Assembly (NCBI GenBank): GCA_947174665.1
Contig: CAMWJV010000003.1
Span: forward strand, 1-64,000
From: an uncultured Lachnospiraceae bacterium
GTDB lineage: Bacteria > Bacillota > Clostridia > Lachnospirales > Lachnospiraceae
DNA: 64,000 nucleotides
Direction: 5' to 3'
Shown: positions 31,217 through 61,230 of the stretch, piece after piece
Layout: each line of letters opens with the position of its first letter
Numbering within the stretch: position 1 is the stretch's first letter
Notes under the pieces: model-generated
Told to the model about the DNA's origin: nothing
Database searches by the model: none
The model's input: only the letters and a program-made list of their open reading frames with translations
Made by a program: the position numbers and the translations under genes

Positions 31217-31246
31217 GTAAACAGAAAAAAGGAGGAAGTGATAGCC

Positions 31247-33415: not shown

Positions 33416-33456
33416 TCCCGTACTTTTGTACAGTAAAAAAGAAGGAGGAAACAAAA

Positions 33457-33885
33457 ATGGGAGTACGATTGAGCATTGAAGGAAGCGAGTCTGTCAAGTT
33501 AAGGGAGACGAGCATCACCGGCATTAAGTTTGGGGCTGATATTCCTCATGACTCCAATGCCAGATCAACGGATCTGGGTTCTACAGTATTGATCGAGGGT
33601 AAAATCCTGGCGGCCGTAAACGGGGAGGCGGCAGATGACACGAGCAAGCTTGCAAAGTGGTCTCTGATCGCGGCGGAAAAGGCTGACTGTTACCGGAAGG
33701 TTCAGATCGATGTAGTGAGCGCATCTCAGATTGTGCGTCAGATCACCATTCCAAACGCTTTCGTGGTGGGATATGAAGAGGACTTTACGGATGAAACCGG
33801 CGCAGGGACATTCCGCCTTCTGATCAAGCAGAAGAAGGATAAGATGAGCAGCCTCAAATTTGAAGGCGGCTTCAGCGGAGAATAG
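33457..33885 (+). CDS. Hcp/tube-like protein 1
   Basis: 142 aa beta-rich: GVRLSIEGSESVKLRETSITGIKFGADIPHDSNARSTDLGSTVLIEGKI...FRLLIKQKKDKMSSLKFEGGF. Confidence 0.6.
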   Translation: MGVRLSIEGSESVKLRETSITGIKFGADIPHDSNARSTDLGSTVLIEGKILAAVNGEAADDTSKLAKWSLIAAEKADCYRKVQIDVVSASQIVRQITIPNAFVVGYEEDFTDETGAGTFRLLIKQKKDKMSSLKFEGGFSGE

Positions 33886-33940
33886 ACGGCAGCCTGGCAA
33901 CAGCTAAAAAATAAGTACAGCACATGAAAGGAGAACTACT

Positions 33941-34369
33941 ATGGGATTTACATTAAAGGTGGAGGGAAATACCACAATTGAATTGGGAACAACGAGCATT
34001 ACGGGCGTGAAAGTCAGCACCGACATTCCGCAGGACAGCAACGCAAGGTCTACGGATCTGGGGAGCACTGTAACTGTTACCGGAAAGATTCTGACCGCTG
34101 TGGACGGGGATCCTTTTGACGGGACAAAGCAGCTTGGCCTGTGGGCACTGGTTCCGGCGGAGAATTCCGACTGCTACCGCAAAGTCACCGTAGAGGTGAT
34201 CGCAGCCTCACAGGTGGTTCGCAAGTATACATACCCCAATGCTTTCGTTGTGGATTACAGGGAAAACTACGGGGATGTGGAAGGCATCGGCACCTTTACG
34301 CTGGTCATGAAGCAGAAAAAAGACAAGATGGCACAGGTATCGGTAGAAGGCGGATACAGCCTTACTTAA
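33941..34369 (+). CDS. Hcp/tube-like protein 2 (tandem paralog)
   Basis: 142 aa; clear paralog of 33457-33885 (TSITGVKVSTDIPQDSNARSTDLGSTVTVTGKILTAVDG...KQKKDKMAQVSVEGGY). Confidence 0.6.
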   Translation: MGFTLKVEGNTTIELGTTSITGVKVSTDIPQDSNARSTDLGSTVTVTGKILTAVDGDPFDGTKQLGLWALVPAENSDCYRKVTVEVIAASQVVRKYTYPNAFVVDYRENYGDVEGIGTFTLVMKQKKDKMAQVSVEGGYSLT

Positions 34370-43922: not shown

Positions 43923-44537
43923 ATGGAAAAAGAAATGGATTTATCCATAGCACGGTTCATAAAGGAATACTGGGAACGGGAAGAGGCGGAAGAACGGGAA
44001 CGTGTGCGGAAGCAGTATGATCCCAAGGAGCGGATCACCTATACGCTGGAGGAGCTGATAGAAGGAATTCGAAGCGGGCACCAGATGCTGTATACTCTGC
44101 CTCTTGAGTTTGAAACGAGGTGTCTGCTGGACGGGAAGATCATGATTCCATATATTAAAAACTTTTTCGAAGTGGAGGATGATGAACCGGAAGCTGTGCT
44201 TCTGGCCGGCAATAAGAGAAAAGTTGCTTTTTCCCTGTCAAGCACACCCTGCAAGAAGATGGCACAGTCCATGGATGATTGGATTGCGCAGACAAGGGAG
44301 AGATTCAAAGAAATGCATTGGGTCATGAAACCTGAGCGTAAGAAAAGCCTGGGAAATATGGAGTATTTCTGTTTTGCAATGCCTACCTCGGAGGGGCGGC
44401 TGTACAATGTTATGTTCCGTTTTCATAAAGATGAGCGGCTATATGCAGGCGTGCTGAACTGTCCTGAGGAGGAGCGCAAGGGAATGGGACTTCTTTTGGA
44501 GGCCATGGTTTATGTGATACAGGAAATGAATGGCTAG
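43923..44537 (+). CDS. Candidate effector/hub chaperone (DcrB/DUF1795-like C-terminal pattern, weak)
   Basis: 204 aa; C-half SLGNMEYFCFAMPTSEGRLYNVMFRFHKDERLYAGVLNCPEEERKGMGLLLEAMVYVIQE; precedes the VgrG-like genes. Confidence 0.35.
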   Translation: MEKEMDLSIARFIKEYWEREEAEERERVRKQYDPKERITYTLEELIEGIRSGHQMLYTLPLEFETRCLLDGKIMIPYIKNFFEVEDDEPEAVLLAGNKRKVAFSLSSTPCKKMAQSMDDWIAQTRERFKEMHWVMKPERKKSLGNMEYFCFAMPTSEGRLYNVMFRFHKDERLYAGVLNCPEEERKGMGLLLEAMVYVIQEMNG

Positions 44538-44551
44538 GAGGCGATGGAAGT

Positions 44552-45949
44552 ATGGATGCGATTACTTATGGGCAGCTTGTGTTGGTGCTGGGAGATACAG
44601 CCATGTCAGTGTTCCAGCTTGCGATCCGGGAAGAACAGGGAAGTCATGGAAGATTATCTGCAACGGCAGCAGCAGAAGAAGGAGCAAAGGATTACCTTTT
44701 ATATGAAGAAAGTGCAGGTGTGGCATTGTATGTCATGCGGGATAAGACGCTGGAACCCCTGTTTTTTGGTCTTCTCACCAGTATGAACATAAAAACCAGT
44801 GGGAAACAGTGCATAGTATGTCTGGAGGCTGTGACGGGAAGTTATCAGATGGATTTTTTTGCACAGAACCGCTCTTTCCAGGATACGGCGCTCACTTCCC
44901 ATCAATTGGTGGAAAAGGTCATGAAGCCGTATAAAGAACAGAGTGAGGTTCTGTTTTCCATACCGGATGAAGAACTGGGGCAGATCATGGTTCAGTATCA
45001 GGAGACGGATTGGGCGTTCTTAAACCGTATTTTATCGAGGTATGGCATCCGCGCTTATATCGACAGCGCAAAGCCCGGCATCTGTCTGCGGGCAGGGCTT
45101 ATGGATACGGAGGAGGATGCAGACTGGGATCATCTCCCTTATAAAGTGATGCGTGATACGGCACCGGCAGATGTGAGGAAGACGCTAAAAGGACAGATAT
45201 GCTATGAGGTGGAGGCGTATGACCTTTTCCCTCTGGGTGAAAAAGTACATTTCCATAATCAGGATCTCTATATTGGGAAAATAATCAGAAGCATCCGGCA
45301 GGGACTTTTGGTAAACAGTTATAGTCTGTACTTTCAGGAGGGGCTTGCCGTTCCCGTACAGGATAATCCGTATCTCAGCGGAGTATCGATCAACGGAACA
45401 GTGTCAGGCGTAAAGAGAAATAAAGTTCAGGTTAATCTTGAAACGGACGCGTTGAAAAAGTGTAAAAAACAGTATCTTTTTCCGTTTTCCACAGTTGCAG
45501 CATCTCCAGATGGAAGCGGATGGTATTGCATGCCTAAGAAAGGGGATCGCGTCCGGATTTTTTTCCCGACTGATGATGAGAGCGAAGGGTATGCGATTGC
45601 CAATATTATGGGCGAATCCGCACCGGCTGAAGACAGTTCTATGGCGAACCCTGACGCAAAAGACATTACAATGCCGGACGGCAAATCCATCAGGTTTGTT
45701 GAAGGAGGAATCCAGCTTGCTGTGGGAGATGATAAAGGAACGGTCACCCTGACAAATGACGGAAAAGCCGAAATCCGGACGGATGAGGATATTGTGATCA
45801 GCGCGGCAGAAACGGTGTACTTTACCACGGAAGGAACAATGGAAGTGATGGCAGGGACACAGATACAGATTATCAGTGATGCAGGAGGCAGTATGTGCAT
45901 GACCAACGACACAGTGCAGATTCAGGCGTCTGCCATTGAGAATAATTAA
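44552..45949 (+). CDS. VgrG/gpD-like hub-spike protein 1
   Basis: IMVQYQETDWAFLNRILSRYGIRAYIDSAKPGICLRAGL (gp27-like), OB-type WYCMPKKGDRVRIFFPTDDESEGYAIANIMGES, beta-helix-like C-term. Confidence 0.78.
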   Translation: MDAITYGQLVLVLGDTAMSVFQLAIREEQGSHGRLSATAAAEEGAKDYLLYEESAGVALYVMRDKTLEPLFFGLLTSMNIKTSGKQCIVCLEAVTGSYQMDFFAQNRSFQDTALTSHQLVEKVMKPYKEQSEVLFSIPDEELGQIMVQYQETDWAFLNRILSRYGIRAYIDSAKPGICLRAGLMDTEEDADWDHLPYKVMRDTAPADVRKTLKGQICYEVEAYDLFPLGEKVHFHNQDLYIGKIIRSIRQGLLVNSYSLYFQEGLAVPVQDNPYLSGVSINGTVSGVKRNKVQVNLETDALKKCKKQYLFPFSTVAASPDGSGWYCMPKKGDRVRIFFPTDDESEGYAIANIMGESAPAEDSSMANPDAKDITMPDGKSIRFVEGGIQLAVGDDKGTVTLTNDGKAEIRTDEDIVISAAETVYFTTEGTMEVMAGTQIQIISDAGGSMCMTNDTVQIQASAIENN

Positions 45950-45961
45950 CGGAGGTGTGCG

Positions 45962-47392
45962 ATGTACAGCTTACATGATATTAACGTAACAGGACTCCCC
46001 ATAAACGAAGTGCTGGAATGTGAGATTGAATCCCAAATAGGGGAACACAGTACGCTCACGCTGCTTGCTTATGCAGACAGGGAGGATGTGATTTATGAAC
46101 TGCCGGACTGTCAGGAGGTAACTGTATGCCTGGGGAAGGGGAAAGAAGGGAGAATCCTTTTTTCCGGTATCGTGACGAATGTGCAGATGTCAGAACAGGG
46201 ACAGATGAAAACAGTTCAGATCAAAGCGAAAAGCCGGAGCTGGCTTATGGATCGGACGAAATATTCCCGCTCTTTTCAAAATACAAAAATGACGTACAGA
46301 GCACTGGCAAGAGAAGTGTTGAATTATTATGAAGACAAAGACAGTGAAAAGGAAAAAGAACAATGCGATATGATCTGCGCGGGAGCGGATCAGGAGATAG
46401 GAAACCTGTATATTCAATATAAAGAAACGGATTGGAAATTCCTGAAAAGGGTACTTTCCATGACAGGGTTAGCAGTTACGCCGGATAGCCGACAGGATAA
46501 ATTGAAATTGTATGTCGGTGTGCCGGAACTTGCCGAGGCAGAATTATCCTACCATGTGCTGGGAATAGACAAGGATATGGAGACTTATTACCTTTTGAAA
46601 GCAAACGGGCGGGATGTTCGTGCAGCAGATTTTACCCGTTACCGGATTGCTTCGGAGCAGCTGCTGGGGATGTTTGAGACGGTTTCCGTACAGGGAAAAA
46701 AGCTGGCGGTATATTCCGGCAGATACATTTTTAAGAATCAGGAGATGCTGGGTATTTATGGGCTGCAAAGTCCTCAGGGACTGAAGCAGGCAGCATCCTA
46801 TCCTATGCATCTGATCGGTGTGGCACTGACAGGAAAGGTGGTTCATGTGTCCGGTACTAAGATACAGGCTGCGCTTGAGATTGACAAAAACCATGCGGAA
46901 CGGGCAGTATACTGGTTCCCGTTCTCAACCCTGTCTGCATCTCCGGATGGGAGCGGCTGGTATTGTATGCCGGAAGAGGGAGACGATGTGCGAATTTATT
47001 TTCCCTCCAAACAGGAAAAGGAGGCCGTGGCACTTAGCGCTGTCAGCAATTATGATGCCTCTCAGTCGGGCGGCGAAGACCGGATGAGTGATCCAAACAG
47101 CCGGTATTTAAGGACAAAAGCGGGACAGGAACTGGCCTTGACGCCGAATCTAATTAAGCTCTCCTGTGGAGAACAGGCATCTTCGGTAGCCATTGACACA
47201 GACGGAAAGGTGACAATACAGGCGCAGAATATGGTGAGGGCAGAGGCGGAGACAAGTGTGACCATCCATGCGGAAGAAAACTTAAACATTCATGTGGCGG
47301 AACAGTTTGTCGCACAGAGTTTGGATGGCGGGCATATAGCTTTTGACGGCGGAAATATCTATATCAGAGGAACCCAGGTTAATTTTGATTAG
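45962..47392 (+). CDS. VgrG/gpD-like hub-spike protein 2
   Basis: LYIQYKETDWKFLKRVLSMTGLAVTPDSRQDKLKLYVGVPEL; WYCMPEEGDDVRIYFPSKQEKEAVALSAVSNYD; repetitive beta C-term. Confidence 0.78.
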   Translation: MYSLHDINVTGLPINEVLECEIESQIGEHSTLTLLAYADREDVIYELPDCQEVTVCLGKGKEGRILFSGIVTNVQMSEQGQMKTVQIKAKSRSWLMDRTKYSRSFQNTKMTYRALAREVLNYYEDKDSEKEKEQCDMICAGADQEIGNLYIQYKETDWKFLKRVLSMTGLAVTPDSRQDKLKLYVGVPELAEAELSYHVLGIDKDMETYYLLKANGRDVRAADFTRYRIASEQLLGMFETVSVQGKKLAVYSGRYIFKNQEMLGIYGLQSPQGLKQAASYPMHLIGVALTGKVVHVSGTKIQAALEIDKNHAERAVYWFPFSTLSASPDGSGWYCMPEEGDDVRIYFPSKQEKEAVALSAVSNYDASQSGGEDRMSDPNSRYLRTKAGQELALTPNLIKLSCGEQASSVAIDTDGKVTIQAQNMVRAEAETSVTIHAEENLNIHVAEQFVAQSLDGGHIAFDGGNIYIRGTQVNFD

Positions 47393-47410: not shown

Positions 47411-48382
47411 ATGGAAAGAGAGACGGCTTTGCAAAGCTATCGGGAAGCGGTATCCGGTAAGATAGCGGATTTTCGCAGCAATATGGAAAAGCATCTTCTG
47501 GAGCATGCCGGATATTTGGAAAATATGGTGAAATGCGGCATGGATTTTTTGGGAGAGCAGATGAAAAAGCAGGAAAAAGAGTATGTTTGTTTTTTGTACA
47601 TCTCTGTGCTGAAGGCAGACTTAATTGCCGGAAAGTACCGTATTTTTCTTCATGGCCTGGATATGCGGTGGTATTTGGATGAGGAACCTGCGGAGGCATA
47701 TGTGGATGCGGATGAACTATTTGAACCTTTCAACCGTCTGCGCAATGCACTGGAAGATGCGAACAGCGGCTACGGAGGAGCTGTCAGCAGTTATGATATT
47801 CAAAATCTGCTTTTTGAAGAGCTGCCTCTTATGGACAGCATGATCTGCCAGATTCTCCGTTATCGTCTGCGTGATTGGGAAGAAAAGGGGATTTTTAATA
47901 AAGTGGTCCGTTCGCCCTATTGGCTCTTAAAGTGGGGGGAATACCGTGACAGGGCAGAGTTTCTGATCCAGACAGACCGTGTGGAAAAGTCAGACTCGGC
48001 CTGGAAGGAAGAATTGAAAAAAGCGGCGCATGATCCGGAAAAGATGGTGTTCAGTTACTGGTACAAGGGAAAATGCCAGGGGAAGGATCCCAAAAATCTG
48101 GATATGCGGTTTATCACCTTTGAGGATTGTGTGGTGCAGGATGTGAAGTTTGAAAACTGTAACATGGAAGGAAGCCGGTTTCCGAAAAGCAAGATTAGCG
48201 GGTGCCGTTTTGAAGGCTGCAATTTGAGCGGAGCGGATTTCAGAAGCTGTAGTTTTGAAAATACATCTTTTGCAGGAGCGGAGCTTACATCAGCTATTTT
48301 CCCGGCTGAGAGCATTCCTTTTTTGGAAATCAGTGCGGAACAGCTTCAGACGATTCAGATATACAGGGAGGAGCGGGCATGA
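47411..48382 (+). CDS. Pentapeptide-repeat protein (candidate effector adaptor)
   Basis: C-term FENCNMEGSRFPKSKISGCRFEGCNLSGADFRSCSFENTSFAGAELTSAIF pentapeptide repeats; helical N-domain. Confidence 0.75.
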   Translation: MERETALQSYREAVSGKIADFRSNMEKHLLEHAGYLENMVKCGMDFLGEQMKKQEKEYVCFLYISVLKADLIAGKYRIFLHGLDMRWYLDEEPAEAYVDADELFEPFNRLRNALEDANSGYGGAVSSYDIQNLLFEELPLMDSMICQILRYRLRDWEEKGIFNKVVRSPYWLLKWGEYRDRAEFLIQTDRVEKSDSAWKEELKKAAHDPEKMVFSYWYKGKCQGKDPKNLDMRFITFEDCVVQDVKFENCNMEGSRFPKSKISGCRFEGCNLSGADFRSCSFENTSFAGAELTSAIFPAESIPFLEISAEQLQTIQIYREERA

Positions 48383-48900
48383 GATATTTTTTTATTAAGC
48401 AGGATAAGGAACTGCCCTGTGCTATCCAGTATCGGGATTTTGACATCAACGGAGGCAGGCATGTGTTTTCAAGACAGGATGCACAGAGGTTAAATGACAG
48501 CGTTGTACTGTACCTTAAAGGAAGCGGAAGGGAAGCCAGATGGGATTTCCTGCAGTGTCCGGTGACGATGTTTGACGAGCGGTTTCAGGATATTTTGGAG
48601 GCATATGAGCCGGGGCTTTTTTTTCAGGAGGTGGTTTTAATTCATAAGGGAAATGCTCTGCAATATCAATATGTACATACTCTCATGGAGCAGGTGGATG
48701 CCGTCTCGGACAAAACCGAATATTATCCGAATGGGACTGTGAAAAAACTGGTTTTGGATCATTCGAAGATTGGCAGACATAACCTGTTCCTGCTGGAGGG
48801 AAATCATAGAAAAGATCCAATTGTCAGTCTGGCATTGGCAGAGAGTCTGCTGCGACGTCAGCCGATTGGAGTCTGTTTTGAAGAAGTGGAGGTAGAATAG
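48379..48900 (+). CDS. Imm11/DUF1629-like small protein
   Basis: 173 aa; C-term LFLLEGNHRKDPIVSLALAESLLRRQPIGVCFEEVEVE resembles the Imm11 C-terminal pattern. Confidence 0.45.
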   Translation: MRYFFIKQDKELPCAIQYRDFDINGGRHVFSRQDAQRLNDSVVLYLKGSGREARWDFLQCPVTMFDERFQDILEAYEPGLFFQEVVLIHKGNALQYQYVHTLMEQVDAVSDKTEYYPNGTVKKLVLDHSKIGRHNLFLLEGNHRKDPIVSLALAESLLRRQPIGVCFEEVEVE

Positions 48901-49794
48901 ATGGGCGACACTGTGACACAGGGAGCTGCAGGGGATGTGGAAACATCTGTAGGAGCGGGACTGGTTGAATCTATTATGTCAAGCTCTACCCTTTCAGATG
49001 TTGAAAACACGGCAAATGGGGCATATATGGAATATTATGAGGCGGGGAATGCCTTAACTGCGGCGCAGGAAAATAAGAAGAGTGCAGAACAGGCATATGA
49101 GGATGCGTGGAATCAATATATGTTTGAGGATCCCAGTCCGGAAAGCTATGAAAAGATGCTGGAGGCAGAGCGGGCGTTGGAGGAAGCCAAGGCAGAGGAA
49201 AAAGCTGCTGCAGGGGCTTTGGAAGCTGCCGCAAAAAAAGCGCAGGTGGCGGCAGAGCTTGTGGAGATGAAAAAAGAGCAGCTGCGGAAGAGCCGATATA
49301 CGGATACTACCTACGTGGTACACTGTGCCCGGGTTGAATGTTCCTGTGGTATGAGGGAGAGTTATCTTGCATTAGGTCCCACTCATGGCGTAAAGACCCG
49401 TCAAATCCCGCAAATGATAACGAGTGATACCATTCTTGATGAAAATATAATCAATTTTGGAGGCTGTAAGAGTAAGGAAAACCCTTCTCTGATTGCAGCT
49501 GCAGAAGAAGCGGCCCGTAAGGCAAATGAGGAGATCAAGGAAAAAAGGAGTAAAGGTGGATTTTTTAACTGGGTCATCGATCTCTTCTGCGGCGACGGGC
49601 ATATTGAAGTATCGGACAGTCTGCTGGAACAGTGTGTGGGAGAATGCAAGGAATGTTTTCCGGCAGATGCAGAATGGAGATTCGGACATAAAAAGGTATT
49701 TATAAACGGGAAACCTGTGCTGTTGCGCAAGTGCAGTGTGAGATGTATTTATGGTGGGCTGGTTACTATACTGCTGTCAGGGCAGCCGGAATAG
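48901..49794 (+). CDS. DUF4280 PAAR-like spike-tip protein with N-terminal coiled-coil
   Basis: YVVHCARVECSCGMRESYLALGPTHGVKTRQIPQMITSDTILDENIINFGGCKSKENPSL ... CKECFPADAEWRFGHKKVFINGKPVLLRKCSVRCIYGGLVTILLSGQPE: DUF4280 Cys/Gly pattern. Confidence 0.8.
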   Translation: MGDTVTQGAAGDVETSVGAGLVESIMSSSTLSDVENTANGAYMEYYEAGNALTAAQENKKSAEQAYEDAWNQYMFEDPSPESYEKMLEAERALEEAKAEEKAAAGALEAAAKKAQVAAELVEMKKEQLRKSRYTDTTYVVHCARVECSCGMRESYLALGPTHGVKTRQIPQMITSDTILDENIINFGGCKSKENPSLIAAAEEAARKANEEIKEKRSKGGFFNWVIDLFCGDGHIEVSDSLLEQCVGECKECFPADAEWRFGHKKVFINGKPVLLRKCSVRCIYGGLVTILLSGQPE

Positions 49795-49800
49795 GAGGAT

Positions 49801-52800
49801 ATGATGGAGCTTACTTATCAGGGACTCAAAATCAGAATCCCTTTGGAGGGATTGGTCAGTGTAGAAGAGTTTAAGATGGAGGCATCTTTTAATAAACATG
49901 TATCTGTAGAGCTTGCATTGATTGCGGAGGAAGAGAAGATTGAATCCGCGATTCATGGACTGGCAGATAATGATGGAATTGAGGTTTATGAGAACGGCCA
50001 AGAGGAACTTATGTTTGCCGGTAAAATAATTGATGCCAAAATGGTGAAGGACAGAGGATTATGCTGTCTGAACTTAAAAGCGCTTTCTTATACGATGGAG
50101 TGGGACCTTGTGCCGGTAAGCCAAAGCTTCCTGAATTTGGATGCAACCTATAAACAGGTCATGGATAAGGTGCTCGAAAACCAGCCGAATGCCGAGATTA
50201 AGGATTGTGTAACCAAAGGCGCCGTGATTTCGGACTTTTTGCTGCAGTACGAAGAGAGTGACTGGGATTTCCTTGCGCGTCTTGCCAGCTGTTTTGGTAC
50301 ATTCCTGGTGCCGGACTGTTGTTCCGACCATGGACGAGCTTATTTTGGCATCCCTGATCTTGGGGAAGAGTATGTCCTGGATGGAGAAGACTATCAGGAA
50401 ACCAAGGACATGGATAAGTATTATCGTATCGGATGTATGCTGGGTATTCTGTCACAGGAGCATATGGGCTGGGAAGTGACTACAGGCCGCAATTTCAGCC
50501 TGGGTCAAAAGGTGCGTTTCAAAGGGATCAGCACGATTGTTACTAATATACGGTATTGCACGATAGACGGCGAGTTAGTGCGCTCTTATCAGCTCAATCG
50601 GGAAAAGGGGGTAGTGTGTCCGCCCAGAAAGAATCCGCATATTTTCGGGATGAGTATCCCTGCTACCGTAAAAGAACGTTCCGGGAATTGTGTGAAGGTG
50701 CATTTTCATATTGACCCTGTATATGACACGTCTCCTCACATCAGGTACTTTACATATGCCATAGAGAGCAGCTTTATTTACTGTATGCCTGAAGTGGGAA
50801 GCCAGGTGCATATTTATTTCCCCAGTGACGATGAAAAGGATGCTGTAGCGGTTCATGCAGTCCGTACAGAAGGGACGCAGGCATCCGGCGGTTCTGCGGG
50901 CTATGCACAGAAACCGGACTTCAAATCTTTTTCAAATGTGAATGGGGCGGAGCTGCTGCTGGCCCCGGAGTTTGCATCCATGTCTGCAGATCAGGAGAAC
51001 GAAACCAAAGTGTCCATGGATGTAAACGGGCTTGTGGAGATTACGGGAAAAAATATTGAAATAACCACAGAAAAAACTCTTTCCCTGGGAGAGGCCATGG
51101 AGGAGGGAGGAAGCCCTGCCAAACAGCTGGCATTGGAGGCAGGAACCCTGACTTTTCAGATAGGTGAGACAGGAACAAGGATTGAACTGACGGAGGAGGC
51201 AAAGATCATTGCAGCCTTTGTCAAAATGGAGGCTACAGATACAACACCTGCAGATAACCCGACGCTTCAAGAGCTTATTGATAATGTGACCATAAACGAT
51301 GAAGAGGCAAGAACTCAGATTAACGATAATGCGGCGAATAAGCTGGTGGAAAAGTATGAAGAGGGCCGCAAGCAGATATTAAGAGGACTTGGGAAGATTG
51401 CCGCTGTTGTTGCCACGGTTGCGGTAGCCGTTGTGCTGACAGTTGCAACAGGAGGCGGCGCGGCCGCAGTGTTTGGTCCTATGATGCTTGCGACATACGG
51501 ACTGGGAGCCGCTTCAATCGGTATTGCCGTCTCGGATATCGGGGAGGGCATCGATAATGTCAACAAATCACAGAGCGGAAATCTGGACGAGGGGCATAAC
51601 TTTCTGCGCGATGATGTGTGCCATGGGAATAAAATTCTCTATAATGTCATCAAGACAGGTGTGGATATTGCCTTCGGTGTTGTGTCGGGGAAGGCAATAG
51701 GAAATATTTCCGGCACAGCGAAATTTGGGCGTTTGGTCTGCGGCAGCAAGGAATTGAAGCAATTAAAATCAGTCGTCCAAATGGGTGGCAATGTGATCAG
51801 TGCTGTCTACAACCAATATGTGGAGACAGGGAAGGTAAGTTTCTCAACCATAGCGTTCAACATTGGGCTTGGAGCTGTTCAGGGATTCATCGGATCCGGT
51901 ATAACAGACAGTATTATGGGGAAGCTGAATATCGATAATTCTACCGTGAAGAAACTCACACAGGTAGTGGTAGGTACATTTGTAGATACGGGAATGGACT
52001 GGGGACTCAGCAGTCTGATGGGGCAGCCGTTTGATTTATGGGACAGCCTTGGGAGAAACGCCTTTGCAAACACGCTTGCCGCCTTTATCGCCGACCCGGT
52101 GGATGCGGTCACGGGAACCTATCTGATCCATGCTACGGACTTCCTTCTGTCGAGCCTGCCTCTGTCATGGAAGCTGGAAAGATCCTATTATTCTACGGGC
52201 GTGAAAGACTCTGTGTTTGGAAAGGGATGGAGTTTCCCCTATGCCAGCAGAATTTATAGGGACACACAGGATACAGAAAACATCCGTGTTCATATGGAGA
52301 CTATCACAGGACATTCCGTGTGCTTTGAAAAGCAGGGGGATGTCTGGGTGAACCAGTGCAGGGGGACATCCCGTTTTTGCCTGGCCGCGCGGGAAGACGC
52401 CGGATGTCCGGAGCAGGAAGTATTCCTGCTCACAGATGTGGTGGATCATACCCTTTGCGTCTATGACAGACAGGGGAAGCTCTCTTATGTGGAATATCCG
52501 AATCACTTAAAATTAATGTTTTCCTATAATGAGGAAGGGCTTCAGCGCATCACAACACCCCTTGGCAACGTTCTGGAGGTAGAATGTCAGGGTGGACGCA
52601 TCCTGCAGGTTACAGATGAGATCGGGCGCAGGACCCAGTACCGCTATGCGGGTGAATACCTGGTGGATGTTGTACATACGGATGAGGGGATCACCCATTA
52701 TGAGTATGATGAGAACGGGCATATCATATCTGTCACCGACCAGAACGGCAGCCGTTATATTGAAAACAAATATGATGAGAAAGGCAGGATCACCCGTCAG

Positions 52801-55800
52801 GGCTTTACCAGTGGGATATACCAGACCTTTACCTATGACGATGCAAACCGCAGAAATACGATCTACTACAGTGAGAACGGTAAGACGGAAATCTATGCGT
52901 ATAATGACCAGCTTCTGAAAGAGCAGACCATTTATGATGATGGCACCTGTGAGGTATACGAATACTCTGACGACAATATGAAGACCGGAGAGGTCAGCCG
53001 GTTGGGGCTCAAAAGGGAATGGGAGTATGACACTTTTGGGCGGACTGTCCTGGAAAAATCTCCGGACGGTTACGAAGTGCGCCATGAATATGATGGGAAC
53101 CATGACCTGATCCGTACATGGGACACGGATGGCAGGGAGACACAGTATGCCTATGATAATGCCCACAATCAGATATTGGTTCGGGAGAAACTGTCTGATT
53201 TGAAATGGCGTGAGACTGCCAAAGAGTATGATTCCATGGGAAGGTGCATTGTGGAGCGGGATGCCCTCGGAAACGAGACGCTGAAGGAGTACGACTCTAA
53301 CCATGCTTATCCCAGCCGCGTCACAACACCGAAAGGGGAGGAGACTTTCTACGGTTATGACGTCGTGGGCCGCAGAATGTCCATCAGTAACAGCTATGGA
53401 AAGGTGGAGATGGCATATAATTCCCGTAACTTTGTCACCAGCCGCACGGACGGGGAGGGATATACCAGTCACAAATTCTATGACCGCATGGGCAACCTGA
53501 CATCCTATTACCCGCCTGTGCAGTGGGAAAAGAAAGAAGGAGGCTACGAGTATCGCCGCGACTTTTTGGAGAGAGTGGTGGATACCATATCTCCGCTGCA
53601 GGAGCACCGGAGAGTATTCCGAAACTTTGACGGGGAGATCACAAATAAAATCCATCCGGTCAGCTATGCGGAAAAAGGTGAGGACGGCGAAGGAACAAGA
53701 TACGAATATGACACTGACGGCAACTGCATCCGCGTTTATTATCCGGACGGTGGTATAGAACGGCGTTTCTATGACGCGGACGGCAACATGATAAAGCAGA
53801 TACAACCGGAGTCCTATGATGCTGCTGCCGACGATGGTGCCGGATACCGTTATGTCCATGATGCCTGCGGCCGCCTGACTCAGGTTTGTGACCCCGACGG
53901 GAATGTCCTGCATACTTACGAGTACAACGGCCACGGACAGATCACCCGGGAAGTGGACGGTGAGGGGAAAGAAAACCTCTATACATACAATGGTCTGGGC
54001 TGGAAGATTCGGGAGCAGATCAGTGTTCGTAAGGAAGGAGATGCGGTCTGCTACCGTGTGATTGCCTATTCTTATGATGCCCAGGGCAACAAAGTGGAGG
54101 AAGCATACGGGCAGCAGGAAGTGGAGAAAGATGGGGAGCCGGAAAGCTGGCATTCTATCCATTTTTCCTACGACCGGAATAACCATCTGACTCTGGTGCA
54201 GGATGACTTCGGGGCACAGATGCGCTATGATTATGACTGCTTGGGAAACGTGACGCTGGAAGAGCGTGTCATAGAGGAAAATATCCGAAGCGTTGTTCAC
54301 TATGCATATAATAAGAACGGCTGGCGGATACAAAAGACAGAAGAAATCCAGGGGAACGGCTCGGTGCAGTCTGCTGTCACGAAATACACTTATGACGCAA
54401 ACGGAAATCTTATTAAAATCACCACGCCGAAGGGCTTTGTAATCCGCAGGGAATATGATGCGGATGACCGACTGACTGAAGAACGTGTCATGGACAGAAA
54501 GAGCGGCATCGACAGACGGGTGCAGTATGCCTATGACGAAGCCGGTAATGTAGTGAAGCGTACAATTCTTGGCACAGACGGGGAGTGTCTGAAGATGGGC
54601 TTCCGTTATGACCTCAAAGACCGTCTGACCCGCAGGACAAATCCCAGCGGTGCAGTCATGCGTTACCTCTATGACCGAAATGATAAACTGTCCAAGGCAA
54701 TCAGCCCTTATGCCTATGAGTTTGAGAGTGACGACGGCGCAGGGACAACCTATGCCTATGACAGCCGCGGCAACCGTGTCCGCGTCACAAATGCACTGGG
54801 AGAGACAGTGCAGGAGCTTTCCTACAACCTGCAGAATCAGCCTGTCATGCAGAAAGATCCGTTTGGGAATCAGACAGCGTATTCCTATGGGCTGGACGGC
54901 AAGATCAAGGATGTACGGCGTTTCGGAGACGGAAAATGGAATGGAAGTGCAGGAGACAGTTCCGCGTGTGGCGAGGCTATGGCGCAGAATGCCGCCGTCA
55001 GCCAGTCATCAGGGAACAGTCAGCGTACCGTTCAGCAGTATGAGTATAATGCCAGAGGACAAATTATTGGTATTGTGGACGGCAATCGGAATCCCATCTC
55101 CTATGATGTGGATCACTGGGGGCGTATCACCGGCATCGGCTTTGCAGATGGCGTAAAAGAGGGATATGAGTATACCCCTGCCGGTCAGGTCTGCAAAACC
55201 ACGGACGGAAACGGCAATTCCGTACAATACCGCTACAACAGCTTCGGTAAGGTCAGCGAACGCATCGACCAGTTAGGATACAGCGAGACGTTCCGGTATG
55301 ACGAGGAGGGCAACCTGTCCCTGCATACCGACAGGGACGGCAGGCGATTGCAGCGGGACTGCAATGTGTTCGGAAGGCCTGTATATGAGAAAGCGACGGA
55401 TGCGGAAGGGAAAAATCCCAATATCAGCACATGGCACTACGACAGCCTGGGCAGGGTTACACGCGCGGTCTGTGACGGGCATTCCTATGAGTATGTCTAT
55501 GACCCACAGGGCAATCTAAAAGAGAAGCGTTCCAGCGGGAGACGCTTGATTTCCTATGCCTATGACAAGATGGGACAGGTAACGGAAATCAAAGATTCCG
55601 CAGGAGCATGCACCCGTTATGAGTATGATATTTTAGGCAGACGGAGCCGGATCTATAACGATGACGGATTGGAAGTGCGCTACGGATATGATGCCCTGAA
55701 CCGCATTAGTCATATCCGTTATGGCAACGGCGTGGAGACGGCCTATGCCTATGACGGGGACGGCAATATCAGCAGTCTGGAGACAAAAGCAGGGGAAAAC

Positions 55801-57159
55801 ATACTGCTCTCTTTTGCTTACCAGTATGACGGGAACGGAAACCGTACGGCTAAAGTGGGTACACAGGCCAGCGCAGCTCTGGGAAGTATTACAGTAGGAA
55901 ATAATGCACTAGATATTTCCTACAGTTATGATGTGCGTGGACAGCTTTTGGAAGAGCGGCGGAATGGTGCTTCTGTTTGCTATACCTATGACAAGGCAGG
56001 GAACAGAGTAAGAAAGACGGATACCAAAGGTGCGACCCTATATCAGTTTAACGGGAAAAATCAGCTTGTAACGGAAGAAAGCAGTAACGGGAAAAATCAG
56101 TTTACATATGACAGACAGGGCGGTATAGTAGAAGAAAAGAGCCCTACGGGTATCCGACTGTTTTCATATAACAGCCGCCACCAGCAGACAAAGGTGGAGA
56201 CTGAAACGGGCAATGTGCAGGAAAACCGTTATGATGTGGAAAACCTGCGCTTTGAACTGCTGGAGAATGGCAGGCGTACCAGTTTTGTATATCATAATGG
56301 TGAGCTTTTGCATGAAGAAGGGAGGGACGAAAAGCAGACCAGTTATCATTTGGGTGCAGGGATTGACGCATTCCAAAGAGGGCAGAAACTTTACTACTAC
56401 CAGCAGGATGAGCAGTTAAGTACGGCATTTATTACTGATGGACGAGGAGAAGTCCAGAACAGTTACCTGTATGATGCTTTTGGTATTGAAGTTGAGACAA
56501 AGGAACAATTCTCGAACCGTATCCGTTATACAGGGCAGCAATATGATGAGTTCACAGAGCAGTATTATTTAAGGGCGAGATACTATAATCCTGTGCTTGG
56601 AAGGTTTTTGCAGGAAGATGTGTACCAAGGTGATGGGTTGAATTTATATGCATACTGTGGGAATAATCCTGTGATATACGATGATCCAAGTGGATATGCT
56701 GGGACACCACAAGATCCAAGTAATCAGTGTGGACAATCAGGAGAGATTGGCGGAAACGACAATAATAACGCTGGTGTACAAGATGAGGATGGCTATCAAG
56801 TTAGTGATGAAAGACGAAGACATATATTAGATGGAGAGGATCCTGTAAATGATCCGGGGCATGGTCCTAATCGAGGATTTACAGATAGCGCATTTCCAGA
56901 CACATGGACGGATGATCAGGCAATTGCAGCTATAGAAAGAGTTGCTAATAGTCCAGATTCAACATGGAAACAATCGACTGGTCCGGGAAATCAAACAGCA
57001 CCGATTACCGTAGGTGGTCCAGACCCAGCAGCACCAAGTACAACTAATAATGGTAGAAATGTGCGGTTTATAGTTGAAGGGCAGGATCATAGTCTGAATA
57101 TTAGAGTCATTGTGGAACCTGGAGGGGAGGGAATCATAACGGGTTATCCTCATAATTAA
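49801..57159 (+). CDS. VgrG-TM-Rhs polymorphic toxin with C-terminal EndoU-like (BECR-fold) domain
   Basis: 2452 aa. gp27/gp5-like N-term (FLLQYEESDWDFLARLASCFGTF; IYCMPEVGSQVHIYFPSDDEKDAVAVHAV); hydrophobic stretch near aa 540-590; DPVDAVTGTYLIHATDFLL; many YD repeats; RYTGQQYDEFTEQYYLRARYYNPVLGRFLQED; tip DERRRHILDGEDPVNDPGHGPNRGFTDSAFPDTWTDDQAIAAIERVA. Confidence 0.88.
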   Translation: MMELTYQGLKIRIPLEGLVSVEEFKMEASFNKHVSVELALIAEEEKIESAIHGLADNDGIEVYENGQEELMFAGKIIDAKMVKDRGLCCLNLKALSYTMEWDLVPVSQSFLNLDATYKQVMDKVLENQPNAEIKDCVTKGAVISDFLLQYEESDWDFLARLASCFGTFLVPDCCSDHGRAYFGIPDLGEEYVLDGEDYQETKDMDKYYRIGCMLGILSQEHMGWEVTTGRNFSLGQKVRFKGISTIVTNIRYCTIDGELVRSYQLNREKGVVCPPRKNPHIFGMSIPATVKERSGNCVKVHFHIDPVYDTSPHIRYFTYAIESSFIYCMPEVGSQVHIYFPSDDEKDAVAVHAVRTEGTQASGGSAGYAQKPDFKSFSNVNGAELLLAPEFASMSADQENETKVSMDVNGLVEITGKNIEITTEKTLSLGEAMEEGGSPAKQLALEAGTLTFQIGETGTRIELTEEAKIIAAFVKMEATDTTPADNPTLQELIDNVTINDEEARTQINDNAANKLVEKYEEGRKQILRGLGKIAAVVATVAVAVVLTVATGGGAAAVFGPMMLATYGLGAASIGIAVSDIGEGIDNVNKSQSGNLDEGHNFLRDDVCHGNKILYNVIKTGVDIAFGVVSGKAIGNISGTAKFGRLVCGSKELKQLKSVVQMGGNVISAVYNQYVETGKVSFSTIAFNIGLGAVQGFIGSGITDSIMGKLNIDNSTVKKLTQVVVGTFVDTGMDWGLSSLMGQPFDLWDSLGRNAFANTLAAFIADPVDAVTGTYLIHATDFLLSSLPLSWKLERSYYSTGVKDSVFGKGWSFPYASRIYRDTQDTENIRVHMETITGHSVCFEKQGDVWVNQCRGTSRFCLAAREDAGCPEQEVFLLTDVVDHTLCVYDRQGKLSYVEYPNHLKLMFSYNEEGLQRITTPLGNVLEVECQGGRILQVTDEIGRRTQYRYAGEYLVDVVHTDEGITHYEYDENGHIISVTDQNGSRYIENKYDEKGRITRQGFTSGIYQTFTYDDANRRNTIYYSENGKTEIYAYNDQLLKEQTIYDDGTCEVYEYSDDNMKTGEVSRLGLKREWEYDTFGRTVLEKSPDGYEVRHEYDGNHDLIRTWDTDGRETQYAYDNAHNQILVREKLSDLKWRETAKEYDSMGRCIVERDALGNETLKEYDSNHAYPSRVTTPKGEETFYGYDVVGRRMSISNSYGKVEMAYNSRNFVTSRTDGEGYTSHKFYDRMGNLTSYYPPVQWEKKEGGYEYRRDFLERVVDTISPLQEHRRVFRNFDGEITNKIHPVSYAEKGEDGEGTRYEYDTDGNCIRVYYPDGGIERRFYDADGNMIKQIQPESYDAAADDGAGYRYVHDACGRLTQVCDPDGNVLHTYEYNGHGQITREVDGEGKENLYTYNGLGWKIREQISVRKEGDAVCYRVIAYSYDAQGNKVEEAYGQQEVEKDGEPESWHSIHFSYDRNNHLTLVQDDFGAQMRYDYDCLGNVTLEERVIEENIRSVVHYAYNKNGWRIQKTEEIQGNGSVQSAVTKYTYDANGNLIKITTPKGFVIRREYDADDRLTEERVMDRKSGIDRRVQYAYDEAGNVVKRTILGTDGECLKMGFRYDLKDRLTRRTNPSGAVMRYLYDRNDKLSKAISPYAYEFESDDGAGTTYAYDSRGNRVRVTNALGETVQELSYNLQNQPVMQKDPFGNQTAYSYGLDGKIKDVRRFGDGKWNGSAGDSSACGEAMAQNAAVSQSSGNSQRTVQQYEYNARGQIIGIVDGNRNPISYDVDHWGRITGIGFADGVKEGYEYTPAGQVCKTTDGNGNSVQYRYNSFGKVSERIDQLGYSETFRYDEEGNLSLHTDRDGRRLQRDCNVFGRPVYEKATDAEGKNPNISTWHYDSLGRVTRAVCDGHSYEYVYDPQGNLKEKRSSGRRLISYAYDKMGQVTEIKDSAGACTRYEYDILGRRSRIYNDDGLEVRYGYDALNRISHIRYGNGVETAYAYDGDGNISSLETKAGENILLSFAYQYDGNGNRTAKVGTQASAALGSITVGNNALDISYSYDVRGQLLEERRNGASVCYTYDKAGNRVRKTDTKGATLYQFNGKNQLVTEESSNGKNQFTYDRQGGIVEEKSPTGIRLFSYNSRHQQTKVETETGNVQENRYDVENLRFELLENGRRTSFVYHNGELLHEEGRDEKQTSYHLGAGIDAFQRGQKLYYYQQDEQLSTAFITDGRGEVQNSYLYDAFGIEVETKEQFSNRIRYTGQQYDEFTEQYYLRARYYNPVLGRFLQEDVYQGDGLNLYAYCGNNPVIYDDPSGYAGTPQDPSNQCGQSGEIGGNDNNNAGVQDEDGYQVSDERRRHILDGEDPVNDPGHGPNRGFTDSAFPDTWTDDQAIAAIERVANSPDSTWKQSTGPGNQTAPITVGGPDPAAPSTTNNGRNVRFIVEGQDHSLNIRVIVEPGGEGIITGYPHN
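56105..56672 (+). repeat. Rhs core 3' segment, copy 1 (568 bp)
   Basis: Nearly identical, gap-free, to 57982-58549 (constant offset 1877). Confidence 0.95.
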
Positions 57160-57256
57160 TATCTGCAGAAATAAAAAAGTAGAAATGCTTGATATTATAG
57201 ACTTTATATTACTTAAATGTCTGGTAATGATTATATCAAGAAGTGGGATTTGGAAG

Positions 57257-57285
57257 GGGGATATGGAAACTGTATCCCCCTGACT
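57257..57285 (+). terminator. Hairpin downstream of the Rhs gene
   Basis: gggggatatggaaactgtatccccc; 8-bp stem. Confidence 0.4.
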
Positions 57286-57648
57286 TGCTACAAATATGTT
57301 ATTATTGGAAGGAGACATCTGTTTGCATAGTTTGATAGAAAATGGGGGTTTTTAAGCGATTTTATGCTAACATGGAGATAATATGTCCAATGAAAAACGA
57401 ACATAAAGGTGGACACCGTAACAGAAACGGAAAATACGATCACAGTTTAATGCGTGAAATTTAGAAACAGACATTCTGGCTCATTCGATGGATAAATAAT
57501 TCAGATAAAGGAAATTGTAATATGCTCGAGTTAAGCGGTTGCTTTACAAGTATAATAATTTATAACATTAGAATTGTATCGAAACATGGTGCAAATAAAG
57601 AGAAGGGAGACGGGTGTTTTGGTCATATAAACATCATACAAGATTGAA

Positions 57649-57960
57649 ATGAATAAAGAATTTTTAGAACAGTTTATATTGAAAATAGAAGAATTGAAAG
57701 AGAAAAGTGATAGGAACGCAGTAGTTTATGATAGCTTTGGACGGTACAATAAAGTTGTATATATTGAAAATGTAATAATAGAAACAAGAGAACTTATTAA
57801 GCATGGAGAGAAGAGAATAGCATTAGAAAATATGTTGGAAAATATAAATGAGGTAGGAATTGCGCTTGATATAGATACAATTACTCTGGCTCAAAAGGCA
57901 TTTGGAAAAAATATCTCTCCTTATATTGAAGAATTATTGAGAGTAATGACTTGTAAGTGA
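57649..57960 (+). CDS. MafI-like immunity protein (candidate for the EndoU-like tip)
   Basis: 103 aa helical; ETRELIKHGEKRIALENMLENINEVGIALDIDTITLAQKAFG resembles the MafI-family layout. Confidence 0.55.
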   Translation: MNKEFLEQFILKIEELKEKSDRNAVVYDSFGRYNKVVYIENVIIETRELIKHGEKRIALENMLENINEVGIALDIDTITLAQKAFGKNISPYIEELLRVMTCK

Positions 57961-57981: not shown

Positions 57982-58549
57982 CATATGACAGACAGGGCAG
58001 TATAGTAGAAGAAAAGAACCCTACGGGTATCCGACTGTTTTCATATAACAGTCGCCACCAGCAGACGAAGGTGGAGACTGAGGACGGTAATGTGCAGGAA
58101 AACCGTTATGACGTAGAAAATTTGCGCGTTGAACTGCTGGAGAATGGCAGGCGTACCAGTTTTGTATATCACAATGGTGAGCTTTTGCATGAAAAAGGGA
58201 GGGAAGAAAAGCAGACTAGCTATCATTTGGGTGCAGGGATTGACGCATTCCAAAGAGGGCAGAAACTTTACTACTACCAGCAGGATGAGCAGTTAAGTAC
58301 GGCATTTATTACTGATGGACGAGGAGAAGTCCAGAACAGTTACCTGTATGATGCTTTTGGTATTGAAGTTGAGACAAAGGAACAATTCTCGAACCGTATC
58401 CGTTATACAGGGCAGCAATATGATGAGTTCACAGAGCAGTATTATTTAAGGGCGAGATACTATAATCCTGTGCTTGGAAGGTTTTTGCAGGAAGATGTGT
58501 ACCAAGGTGATGGGTTGAATTTATATGCATACTGTGGGAATAATCCTGT
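57982..58549 (+). repeat. Rhs core 3' segment, copy 2 (568 bp)
   Basis: See copy 1 at 56105-56672. Confidence 0.95.
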
Positions 58550-59147
58550 AACATATTTTGACCCGAGTGGATACAACGGTGATTCAACATGTCCGCCTGA
58601 ATCAAACATTGCTGATGATAATGAAAAAGATAAGTATCCAGAAAGAACACCAGAGGCACAAGAAGAGGCGCAAAGAGTGGTTGACGTTGGAAATGCAATA
58701 AAAGCATTTGACGAATCTCAGAACCCCGACCAGCATCCAACAACAATGGTCTTTGTTCATGAAGATGGTACCGTTTCAGTAGGTATAAGTGGATCTCCCA
58801 CTGGAAGCAAAGGGCTATCTGAGTATTCTCAAACACTACAAGATGCATTAAATGAGAGTGCAGGATATGATAAGTATAATGTTTCTCCAACAGTTGATGA
58901 TGCTCTATTTGGAAAGCTTAATTACGAAAGTGGAGGAGCTCCTGTTGGAGTTTGTGCAGAGCCGAAAGCAGCCACGGCAGCACATTATAATGATAGTCCA
59001 ATAACGGGAATGGACGTAAGGTATTATAGTAATGAAGGGAACCCGTATCCATTGCCGAATGCAACTTCGCCTAATCAAATGGCATCTTGTCCTACATGTG
59101 AACGTAATGAAGGAGTGTATATGAATTATGCAAATGGCAAACAATAG
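57982..59147 (+). CDS. Orphan Rhs C-terminal cassette with YwqJ-like deaminase tip (possibly silent)
   Basis: ORF-track start is GTG 58071; homology extends upstream in frame to 57982 without an obvious ATG/RBS. Tip GVCAEPKAATAAH...CPTCERNEGVYM: C-A-E and CxxC deaminase motifs. Confidence 0.75.
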
Positions 59148-59916
59148 AATTATGGCAATACAGGAAGATAGTAAACCAGTTATGCAAAGATTAAGAGCCT
59201 ATATTGAACCAGTAGATCACACTTGGTTTGACAATTTGCGACCGGCAAAAGAGGGGCAGATTGCAGAATTAAAAAGACAATTAGATTTAGATAATTTAGG
59301 CTTGCATTTGCCAGAAATTTTTGTTGATTTTTTACAAGAAGCAGGAGAAGGTGCAGGAGGATTATTTTATGATTTTTTGCATACAGAAATCTCATTATCG
59401 TATTTGCTTTCGCGAAATACCCGTATATATTTAAATGAAGCGGATGGAATGAGGCCATTTTGTTTTGATTTTTTGAAAGATAGCATGGGGATTTTTTATT
59501 CTCTAAATCTTAATAAAAATAATCAAAAAATTTACATGGAAGAAACATATGAAATTAGTGAAAATTTTGAAAAACTACTTTTTCAATGTGCAGTGCATAG
59601 ATATGAAAAAGAGTATTATCTGCATAAGGCTTTTTTTTCGGCTAATAATAGCAGCTTTCATGATTCTGAAATAAGGAGAAAAGGGATAGATTTATTTGAT
59701 TATTTATACCAAGTGATAGAACATTATCATTTAGAAAGGGCATGGTTTAGTGATGCTTTTAACTTCTTTGCATACAATGCTGAAATGTCGCTAATCATTA
59801 ATCGAAGCGGTGCAGGATTTTATGGATATATTTATTCTGATGATATAAATTTGTTACATAAAATACAAAAAAAGTGGTTAGTTGAAACAGGAGCGAGAAT
59901 ACGAGAGGTAAACTAA
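59128..59916 (+). CDS. SMI1/KNR4 (SUKH)-like immunity protein
   Basis: QIAELKRQLDLDNLGLHLPEIFVDFLQEAGEGAGGLFYDFLHTEISLSYLLSRNTRIYL; adjacent to and overlapping the toxin cassette. Confidence 0.65.
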   Translation: MQMANNRIMAIQEDSKPVMQRLRAYIEPVDHTWFDNLRPAKEGQIAELKRQLDLDNLGLHLPEIFVDFLQEAGEGAGGLFYDFLHTEISLSYLLSRNTRIYLNEADGMRPFCFDFLKDSMGIFYSLNLNKNNQKIYMEETYEISENFEKLLFQCAVHRYEKEYYLHKAFFSANNSSFHDSEIRRKGIDLFDYLYQVIEHYHLERAWFSDAFNFFAYNAEMSLIINRSGAGFYGYIYSDDINLLHKIQKKWLVETGARIREVN

Positions 59917-61216: not shown

Positions 61217-61230
61217 AAAATGGGGGTGTT

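What the first reader, a model, noticed from the sequence alone, without database searches (positions are those of the whole stretch)
49801..57159. 2452-aa VgrG-TM-Rhs-EndoU effector
A single protein carries hub, hydrophobic segment, Rhs cage and EndoU-like tip, so it would be an evolved-VgrG effector delivered as part of the spike. Rhs toxins are usually PAAR-linked; a direct VgrG fusion with a separate DUF4280 tip gene is less common. The EndoU call rests on the RRHILDGE...GHG...FPDTWTDDQAI pattern.
Basis: partly seen in the sequence, partly recalled or inferred. Interest (0 to 1): 0.8.

Follow-up and report, generated by a model that had tools for sequence, protein, structure and literature searches.

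The report
Bacillota injection-spike VgrG-Rhs toxin with EndoU tip
A gut bacterium (Lachnospiraceae, close to Acetatifactor) encodes one giant protein that joins the spike of a phage-tail-like injection machine to a toxin cage and an exchangeable RNA-cutting tip; the same layout is kept in dozens of Bacillota genomes, which helps explain a suspected but uncharacterised weapon of Gram-positive bacteria.

Summary
Window 49801-57159 (+) encodes 2452 aa: VgrG hub (1-~470), all-helical segment with a transmembrane-like stretch (~490-764), Rhs cage (765-2298) and an EndoU tip (2299-2452). PF14436 matches above its cut-off; the hub is weak by HMM but its AF2 model matches VgrG spikes (Foldseek to 3e-20). 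The fusion is not a one-off: 66 GTDB loci, mostly Lachnospiraceae and Clostridium, encode relatives in conserved synteny. The fused hubs form one clade, and 43 of 46 scorable loci have exactly two stand-alone VgrGs upstream. Tips change abruptly at residue 2298, even in 95%-identical neighbours. The likely immunity gene is the MafI-like 57649-57960. A silent cassette (58071-59147) shares a 592-nt direct repeat with the toxin gene. A conserved upstream gene (43923) has the Mog1/DcrB fold of Eag chaperones, which hold Rhs transmembrane segments. Most likely this is a specialised-VgrG effector of a Bacillota contractile-type injection system, delivering an antibacterial RNase by a T6SS-like route. 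Not shown: expression, secretion, RNase activity, immunity, and a sheath (31238 is only a candidate). New variant of a known kind. Most novel reading left open: a three-paralogue VgrG spike carrying a single Rhs cage.

The parts
49801..51210 (+). VgrG hub/spike part of the effector, residues 1-~470 (gp27/gp5-like, OB, short beta-helix)
   Evidence: TIGR01646, Phage_GPD weak; paralogue of 45962; AF2 + Foldseek to VgrG/eCIS spikes, E down to 3e-20
51211..52092 (+). all-helical linker, residues ~471-764, with transmembrane-like segment 525-564
   Evidence: hydropathy peak 2.42; helices 490-762 in low-confidence AF2 model
52093..56694 (+). Rhs cage, residues 765-2298; N-terminal D765-P766 motif and C-terminal Asp pair D2273 / D2294-D2295 (DPSG)
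   Evidence: 17 RHS repeats, DUF6531, Rhs_assc_core; motifs in relatives
56695..57159 (+). EndoU tip, residues 2299-2452; predicted active-site residues H2341, H2354, T2415, T2447
   Evidence: PF14436 E 4e-11 over cut-off; alignments
57649..57960 (+). likely cognate immunity protein, MafI-like, 103 aa (490 nt after the toxin stop)
   Evidence: NF033691 E 7e-5, below curated cut-off; MafI-family genes follow the homologous EndoU tips in Rhizobium and on an E. coli plasmid, sub-threshold MafI-like genes in E. coli Rhs and the phage
56105..56696 (+). direct repeat copy 1: 3' end of the Rhs core
   Evidence: 95.6% identical over 592 nt to 57982-58573, the stretch of about 300 nt from offset 250 identical
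57982..58573 (+). direct repeat copy 2: start of the orphan cassette
58071..59147 (+). silent orphan Rhs-core + alternative tip (deaminase-like CAE..CPTC motif by eye; no HMM support)
   Evidence: 91% identical to residues 2098-2307 with an upstream in-frame stop; no ribosome site; tip without Pfam hit over cut-off
59128..59916 (+). SUKH-like protein, probable immunity of the orphan tip
   Evidence: SMI1_KNR4 E 0.007, SUKH_6 E 0.01, both below cut-off
48901..49794 (+). DUF4280 PAAR-like spike cap
   Evidence: PF14107 E 1.5e-18
48379..48900 (+). Imm11-like protein; kept at this place whatever the tip, so more likely a loading/structural factor than the immunity gene
   Evidence: PF07791 E 6e-6; found upstream in 40 of 46 loci
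47411..48382 (+). pentapeptide-repeat protein, conserved
   Evidence: PF00805; 45 of 46 loci
45962..47392 (+). stand-alone VgrG2
   Evidence: Phage_GPD 54 bits, over cut-off; 45 of 46 loci
44552..45949 (+). stand-alone VgrG1
   Evidence: Phage_GPD 36 bits, over cut-off; 41 of 46 loci
43923..44537 (+). Eag-like chaperone candidate (Mog1/PsbP/DcrB fold)
   Evidence: AF2 pLDDT 92.6; Foldseek SciW 3.6e-5, DcrB 7e-5, EagT6-Tse6 2e-4, PsbP 5e-6; 42 of 46 loci
33457..33885 (+). Hcp/TssD-like tube protein 1
   Evidence: family profile vs PDB Hcp1 6bdc E 0.005; Pfam TssD matched by 17 of 22 members, best 3e-5
33941..34369 (+). Hcp/TssD-like tube protein 2
   Evidence: 57% identical to protein 1
31238..33415 (+). 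candidate sheath (725 aa; TssB+TssC-like only by eye)
   Evidence: just upstream of the Hcp genes; found in all 12 family genomes that have the VgrG; profile comparison with TssB/TssC not significant

Best explanation
The protein is a specialised ('evolved') VgrG effector of a Bacillota contractile-type injection system. Its hub is proposed to sit in the spike with the two co-encoded VgrGs, capped by the separate DUF4280 protein. The helical segment, held before firing by an Eag-like chaperone (probably gene 43923), is proposed to help the cage cross the target membrane. The Rhs shell encloses the EndoU tip, and the conserved Asp pair cuts it free after DPSG at residue 2298, as in Rhs1 and TcC proteins. 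The released EndoU domain cleaves RNA in a competing bacterium; the producer is protected by the MafI-like protein 57649-57960. The tip is a replaceable cassette, and the downstream orphan tip with its 592-nt repeat is a stored alternative. Shown here: domain anatomy, hub fold, EndoU and Rhs families, tip exchange, synteny, single origin of the fusion, chaperone fold. Inferred: assembly, membrane crossing, self-cleavage, RNase activity, target, immunity.
For: Hub fold and homology to adjacent VgrGs. Rhs and EndoU HMMs. EndoU tips of the same clade occur in unrelated delivery proteins: a Rhizobium hemagglutinin-repeat protein followed by an annotated MafI gene, a plasmid EndoU-MafI pair, E. coli Rhs orphan tips and a phage toxin, the last two also followed by MafI-like genes. 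Tip swap: the trunk is 86-100% identical to L055 (L044: 77-98%) up to about residue 2300, then 13-23%; tips differ across loci. Synteny with hub, cap, tube and chaperone genes. Eag-type fold of 43923. Candidate sheath present in all 12 family genomes with the VgrG. One origin of the fused hub, SH-aLRT 100. Asp pair at Rhs1-like spacing (PMC8636562).
Against: No annotated T6SS or eCIS sheath, ClpV or baseplate gene was found in the cluster; the candidate sheath has no detectable sequence kinship to TssB/TssC and could not be folded. The hub is below HMM cut-offs. The tip has no sequence match to solved EndoU structures. The immunity match is below the curated cut-off, and the gene lies 490 nt away instead of adjacent. 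The first DPxG motif is changed to EDVY. The Mog1/PsbP fold is also that of unrelated proteins.
Confidence: 0.78

Rival explanations
1. The spike is assembled as alternative homotrimers: VgrG1, VgrG2 and the VgrG-Rhs protein each form their own spike, so that three Rhs cages would sit on one spike.
For: VgrGs form homotrimers in known systems (established knowledge); some clusters have only one stand-alone VgrG (L038, L041).
Against: 43 of 46 loci have exactly two stand-alone VgrGs plus the fusion, and the three paralogue lineages are old and diverged together with mirrored trees; three cages of about 1500 residues on one short spike would be crowded.
Confidence: 0.4
2. It is a polymorphic toxin exported by another route (T7SS, Sec, lysis), and the VgrG domain is a relic or only a docking module.
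For: No recognisable sheath, ATPase or standard baseplate gene; EndoU tips of the same clade also ride on other delivery proteins.
Against: The hub is conserved as one lineage in 40 loci with VgrG, cap and chaperone-like genes in order; no LXG/WXG family was matched in Pfam.
Confidence: 0.12
3. The particle is released (eCIS-like) and acts on another kind of target, such as host or protist cells, rather than on neighbouring bacteria.
For: Foldseek's best hub matches are eCIS spikes; machine type unknown; the host is a gut commensal.
Against: Immunity-type genes follow the toxin and the orphan tip; FHA and PP2C genes recall membrane-anchored T6SS control; tip polymorphism with relatives in bacterial competition systems.
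Confidence: 0.15
4. The EndoU tip is inactive or the locus is decaying.
For: 490-nt AT-rich gap between toxin and immunity gene.
Against: 2452 codons open with a good ribosome site; H2341, H2354, T2415 and T2447 present.
Confidence: 0.08

Closest known systems
T6SS PAAR-TMD-Rhs effectors with Eag chaperones (Photorhabdus Rhs1-EagR, Salmonella Rhs1-SciW)
   Same: Spike module + transmembrane segment + Rhs cage + C-terminal toxin + immunity gene; Asp-pair self-cleavage motif; Eag-fold protein encoded nearby (PMC8636562, PMC7773334)
   Different: The spike module is the VgrG hub itself; the PAAR-like cap is a separate DUF4280 gene; Bacillota host; no recognisable TssBC/ClpV
Specialised (evolved) VgrGs of T6SS
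   Same: VgrG with a C-terminal toxin extension delivered as part of the spike (PMC10433429)
   Different: Extension is a complete Rhs cage with exchangeable tip; in 43 of 46 loci with two further VgrGs in the same operon
Gram-positive DUF4280 / Phage_GPD neighbourhoods ('unknown phage-like translocation system')
   Same: This cluster is of that type: Phage_GPD next to DUF4280 in Firmicutes without T6SS/eCIS genes (PMC8651086, PMC5349215)
   Different: Those papers give only the neighbourhood; here effector, immunity, chaperone, tube and a sheath candidate are placed
Bacterial EndoU toxins (CdiA-CT STECO31, MafB-MGI-1 NEM8013, BC_0920) and MafI immunity
   Same: PF14436, two conserved His and Ser/Thr residues, MafI-like downstream gene
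   Different: The His-His-Lys triad of STECO31 is not clear here: no conserved Lys in the aligned tips; substrate unknown
Rhs / CDI orphan toxin-immunity cassettes
   Same: Orphan core-tip-immunity cassette downstream with long identical core DNA
   Different: Attached to a VgrG trunk in Bacillota

Membership tests
Bacterial EndoU nuclease (PF14436) | profile match above curated cut-off | tested here: met
   36.8 and 43.7 bits vs 25.3
Bacterial EndoU nuclease (PF14436) | active-site pattern H, H, [SNT], [SNT] (Zhang 2012) | tested here: met
   H2341, T2415, T2447 invariant in A2; H2354 shared by the closer homologues, shifted by a gap in Rhizobium
Bacterial EndoU nuclease (PF14436) | fold and RNase activity | not testable with these tools
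   not folded; no sequence match in PDB
VgrG spike proteins | gp27/gp5-like hub, OB and beta-helix fold | tested here: met
   Foldseek to VgrG/eCIS spikes, E 1e-16 to 3e-20
VgrG spike proteins | family HMM above curated cut-off | tested here: not met
   TIGR01646 28.5 vs 121.8; Phage_GPD 20.4 vs 30.1. Filed as VgrG-like by fold and by homology to the adjacent VgrG2, which does pass Phage_GPD
VgrG spike proteins | assembles as a trimer on the tube | not testable with these tools
   no complex modelling or experiment
Rhs polymorphic toxins | YD/RHS repeats, Rhs_assc_core, variable C-terminal tip after DPxG | tested here: met
Rhs polymorphic toxins | Asp-pair self-cleavage | tested here: inconclusive
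   D2273 and D2294/D2295 present at matching spacing, first motif EDVY instead of DPxG; cleavage not tested
Eag chaperones (gene 43923) | DcrB/Mog1 fold | tested here: met
Eag chaperones (gene 43923) | binds the effector's transmembrane helices | not testable with these tools
   needs a binding experiment
MafI immunity family (57649) | NF033691 above cut-off | tested here: not met
   22.6 vs 31 bits; the E. coli (30.3) and phage (24.2) homologues are also below, the plasmid one (64.5) above
Type VI secretion system | TssB/TssC sheath | tested here: inconclusive
   no Pfam hit; hhalign probability about 1% or less
Type VI secretion system | Hcp tube | tested here: met
   TssD-like, weak but consistent
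Type VI secretion system | ClpV, TssE/F/G/K, TssJLM | tested here: inconclusive
   none recognised among the cluster genes scanned; 41041 and 42381 were not scanned with Pfam

The most novel reading that the evidence does not exclude
Bacillota have a T6SS-like contractile machine whose spike is an obligate heterotrimer of three co-encoded VgrG paralogues, only one of which carries a covalently attached Rhs cage; this places one cage per spike without a PAAR-Rhs fusion. Two plain VgrGs plus one VgrG-Rhs in 43 of 46 loci and three co-diverging paralogue lineages fit this.
Probability: 0.4. Interest if true: 0.82.

Novelty: new variant of a known kind. Interest (0 to 1): 0.62.

Why it matters
[quoted passage not shown] This locus supplies its effector logic: a spike-fused Rhs toxin with exchangeable tips, an Eag-fold chaperone, likely immunity genes and stored alternative tips. 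The sheath-candidate family occurs in 13 of 200 sampled genomes of the same family and 13 of 398 of the phylum. If the tip is toxic and 57649 protects, there is a direct assay for whether Bacillota fire such a machine at neighbours, and the 2+1 VgrG arrangement makes heterotrimer spikes testable.

Tried and rejected
Imm11-like 48379 as the cognate immunity: rejected as unlikely, since it stays in place whatever the tip. The single Phage_sheath_1 gene of the genome (contig C9) as this machine's sheath: it lies on another contig; not pursued further. Sheath identity of 31238 by profile methods: PDB search, Pfam on 14 members, hhalign against TssC and TssB families and with a larger alignment all not significant, so left as a candidate. 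Solved-structure search for the tip: no hit. Conserved genes 38547, 43126, 41041 vs PDB/Pfam: no significant identity. PADLOC: nothing. Promoter scan downstream: not above chance. Michalska 2018 (EndoU) not held.

Full report
OBSERVATION. The ORF at 49801-57159 (+) is 2452 codons long without a stop. It starts 6 nt after the DUF4280 stop codon, behind an AGGAGG ribosome site. Pfam and NCBIfam give 17 RHS repeats, DUF6531 (765-833), Rhs_assc_core (2224-2298) and EndoU_bacteria (2350-2451, E 6e-9, over cut-off); the hub matches vgr_GE and Phage_GPD only below cut-off. It is, however, homologous to the stand-alone VgrGs next to it. An AF2 model of residues 1-770 from 41 aligned sequences (hub pLDDT about 84-95) retrieves eCIS and T6SS VgrG spikes with E-values from 3e-20. 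Residues 525-564 form a strong hydrophobic segment in an all-helical stretch of low confidence. The four-part anatomy is therefore real.

TIP. The isolated tip scores 43.7 bits to PF14436 against a cut-off of 25.3. Relatives are 62% identical in E. coli (an Rhs orphan tip, whose surrounding DNA matched 3 of 5426 genomes), 41% in a Rhizobium hemagglutinin-repeat protein, and 71% in a Ruminococcus phage protein with an intein-like segment. A small gene follows each, as it does a plasmid EndoU gene: annotated MafI in Rhizobium and on the plasmid, MafI-like but below the curated cut-off in E. coli and the phage. The window's 57649-57960 matches the same family (E 7e-5, below cut-off), so it is the best immunity candidate, though it lies 490 nt away across an AT-rich gap. 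H2341, H2354, T2415 and T2447 fit the H, H, [SNT], [SNT] pattern given for Tox-EndoU (PMC3482391). Known EndoU toxins differ in substrate: a specific tRNA for CdiA-CT STECO31, uridylate-preferring and non-specific for MafB (PMC9086364, PMC9990079). The substrate cannot be predicted here.

CASSETTE STRUCTURE. Against the nearest relatives L055 and L044 the trunk is 86-100% and 77-98% identical per 100 residues up to about 2300, then 13-23%. The break falls at the DPSG that ends the Rhs core. Tips across the loci differ from each other. Downstream lies an orphan cassette: 592 nt of Rhs core, 95.6% identical to the toxin gene's own 3' core with the stretch of about 300 nt from offset 250 identical, then another tip and a SUKH-like gene. 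It has an upstream in-frame stop and no ribosome site, so it looks silent. Such repeats are the known substrate for tip replacement in Rhs systems. Tip and immunity genes are lower in G+C (0.44, 0.29) than the cage (0.50), as expected for moved modules.

RELATIVES. One GTDB scan with the hub and helical region found 66 loci, mainly Lachnospiraceae, Lacrimispora, Hungatella, Clostridium and Tepidibacter; the nearest (L055) is an Acetatifactor sp.. Gene order is kept: 38547, 41041, 42381, 43126, 43923, VgrG1, VgrG2, pentapeptide, Imm11-like, DUF4280, VgrG-Rhs, immunity, orphan tips. Of 46 loci with enough upstream DNA, 45 have VgrG2 and the pentapeptide gene, 42 have 43923, 40 Imm11-like, 39 DUF4280, and 43 have exactly two stand-alone VgrGs. 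In a tree of 120 hubs the 40 fused hubs form one group (SH-aLRT 100); VgrG1 and VgrG2 need two changes each, and the three parts show the same locus relationships (quick method, with long-branch warnings for two loci). The tree used only loci with exactly two stand-alone VgrGs, so it does not itself test the 2+1 count. The fusion thus most likely arose once, before these loci diverged, while tips were exchanged.

CHAPERONE. From its position and sequence I guessed that 43923 has the Eag/DcrB fold before testing. The AF2 model (pLDDT 92.6) matches PsbP (5e-6), SciW (3.6e-5), DcrB (7e-5), SciW-Rhs1 TMD (1.7e-4) and EagT6-Tse6 (2e-4). PsbP and Mog1 share the fold, so the chaperone role rests on context: it sits in an operon whose effector has a hydrophobic segment ahead of an Rhs cage, as in PMC7773334 and PMC8636562.

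MACHINE. Two Hcp/TssD-like genes follow a 725-aa protein whose family is present in 13 of 200 sampled family genomes, including all 12 with the VgrG, and in 13 of 398 genomes of the phylum. Hcp-like genes sit beside its relatives. It resembles a fused TssB-TssC by eye, but profile comparison did not support this and it could not be folded. VWA, DnaJ, FHA and PP2C genes complete the cluster. [quoted passage not shown] this cluster is of that type. Paper searches found no experimental account in the held open-access library, which lacks most subscription papers and all preprints.

MECHANISM AND VERDICT. The best explanation is a specialised VgrG whose spike carries a caged EndoU RNase into competing bacteria. 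Anatomy and evolutionary pattern are shown; assembly, crossing, cleavage, RNase activity and immunity are inferred. The most novel reading left open is a heterotrimeric spike of the three paralogues with one cage; alternative homotrimers are the main rival. New variant of a known kind.

Noticed in passing
31238-34369: 725-aa conserved protein plus two Hcp-like genes: core of an uncharacterised Bacillota injection machine; sheath identity unproven.
   Followed up: partly
38547-41057 and 34446-34916: Highly conserved 836-aa protein with actin/Hsp70-like phosphate motifs by eye (Pfam Actin E 0.06, HSP70 E 0.3) and a DnaJ-domain protein in the same cluster; possibly a chaperone pair in place of ClpV.
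   Followed up: partly
48379-48900: Imm11-family gene kept beside DUF4280 in 40 of 46 loci whatever the tip; the family name 'immunity' may be misleading here.
   Followed up: partly
L109 6004-6351; L112 4118-4572: E. coli Rhs orphan EndoU tip with MafI-like gene, 62% identical to the window tip; its surrounding DNA matched 3 of 5426 complete genomes: the same tip lineage in two phyla.
   Followed up: partly
L113 13068-14649: Ruminococcus phage NatCom_29429 carries a 432-aa protein with intein-like segment and EndoU tip (71% identical), a MafI-like gene, and an FtsK/SpoIIIE-like gene nearby.
   Followed up: partly
L068, L087, L094, L062, L077, L102: DUF4280 proteins of about 470-550 aa followed by extra unknown genes before VgrG-Rhs: the PAAR-like cap may also carry a payload.
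   Followed up: no
L041 6367-8772 (-): In genome G054 the third VgrG is 802 aa with a non-Rhs extension at the same place.
   Followed up: no
L042 (G000 contig C201): Second partial cluster in the own genome: 42381-, 43126-, 43923- and VgrG1-like genes, cut by the contig end.
   Followed up: no
57160-57648: 490-nt AT-rich gap (G+C 0.33) between toxin and immunity gene; in the homologous pairs the two genes are adjacent.
   Followed up: partly
60479-61998: LytTR-type regulator and sensor kinase-like gene pair (by eye) just downstream; possible control of the locus.
   Followed up: no
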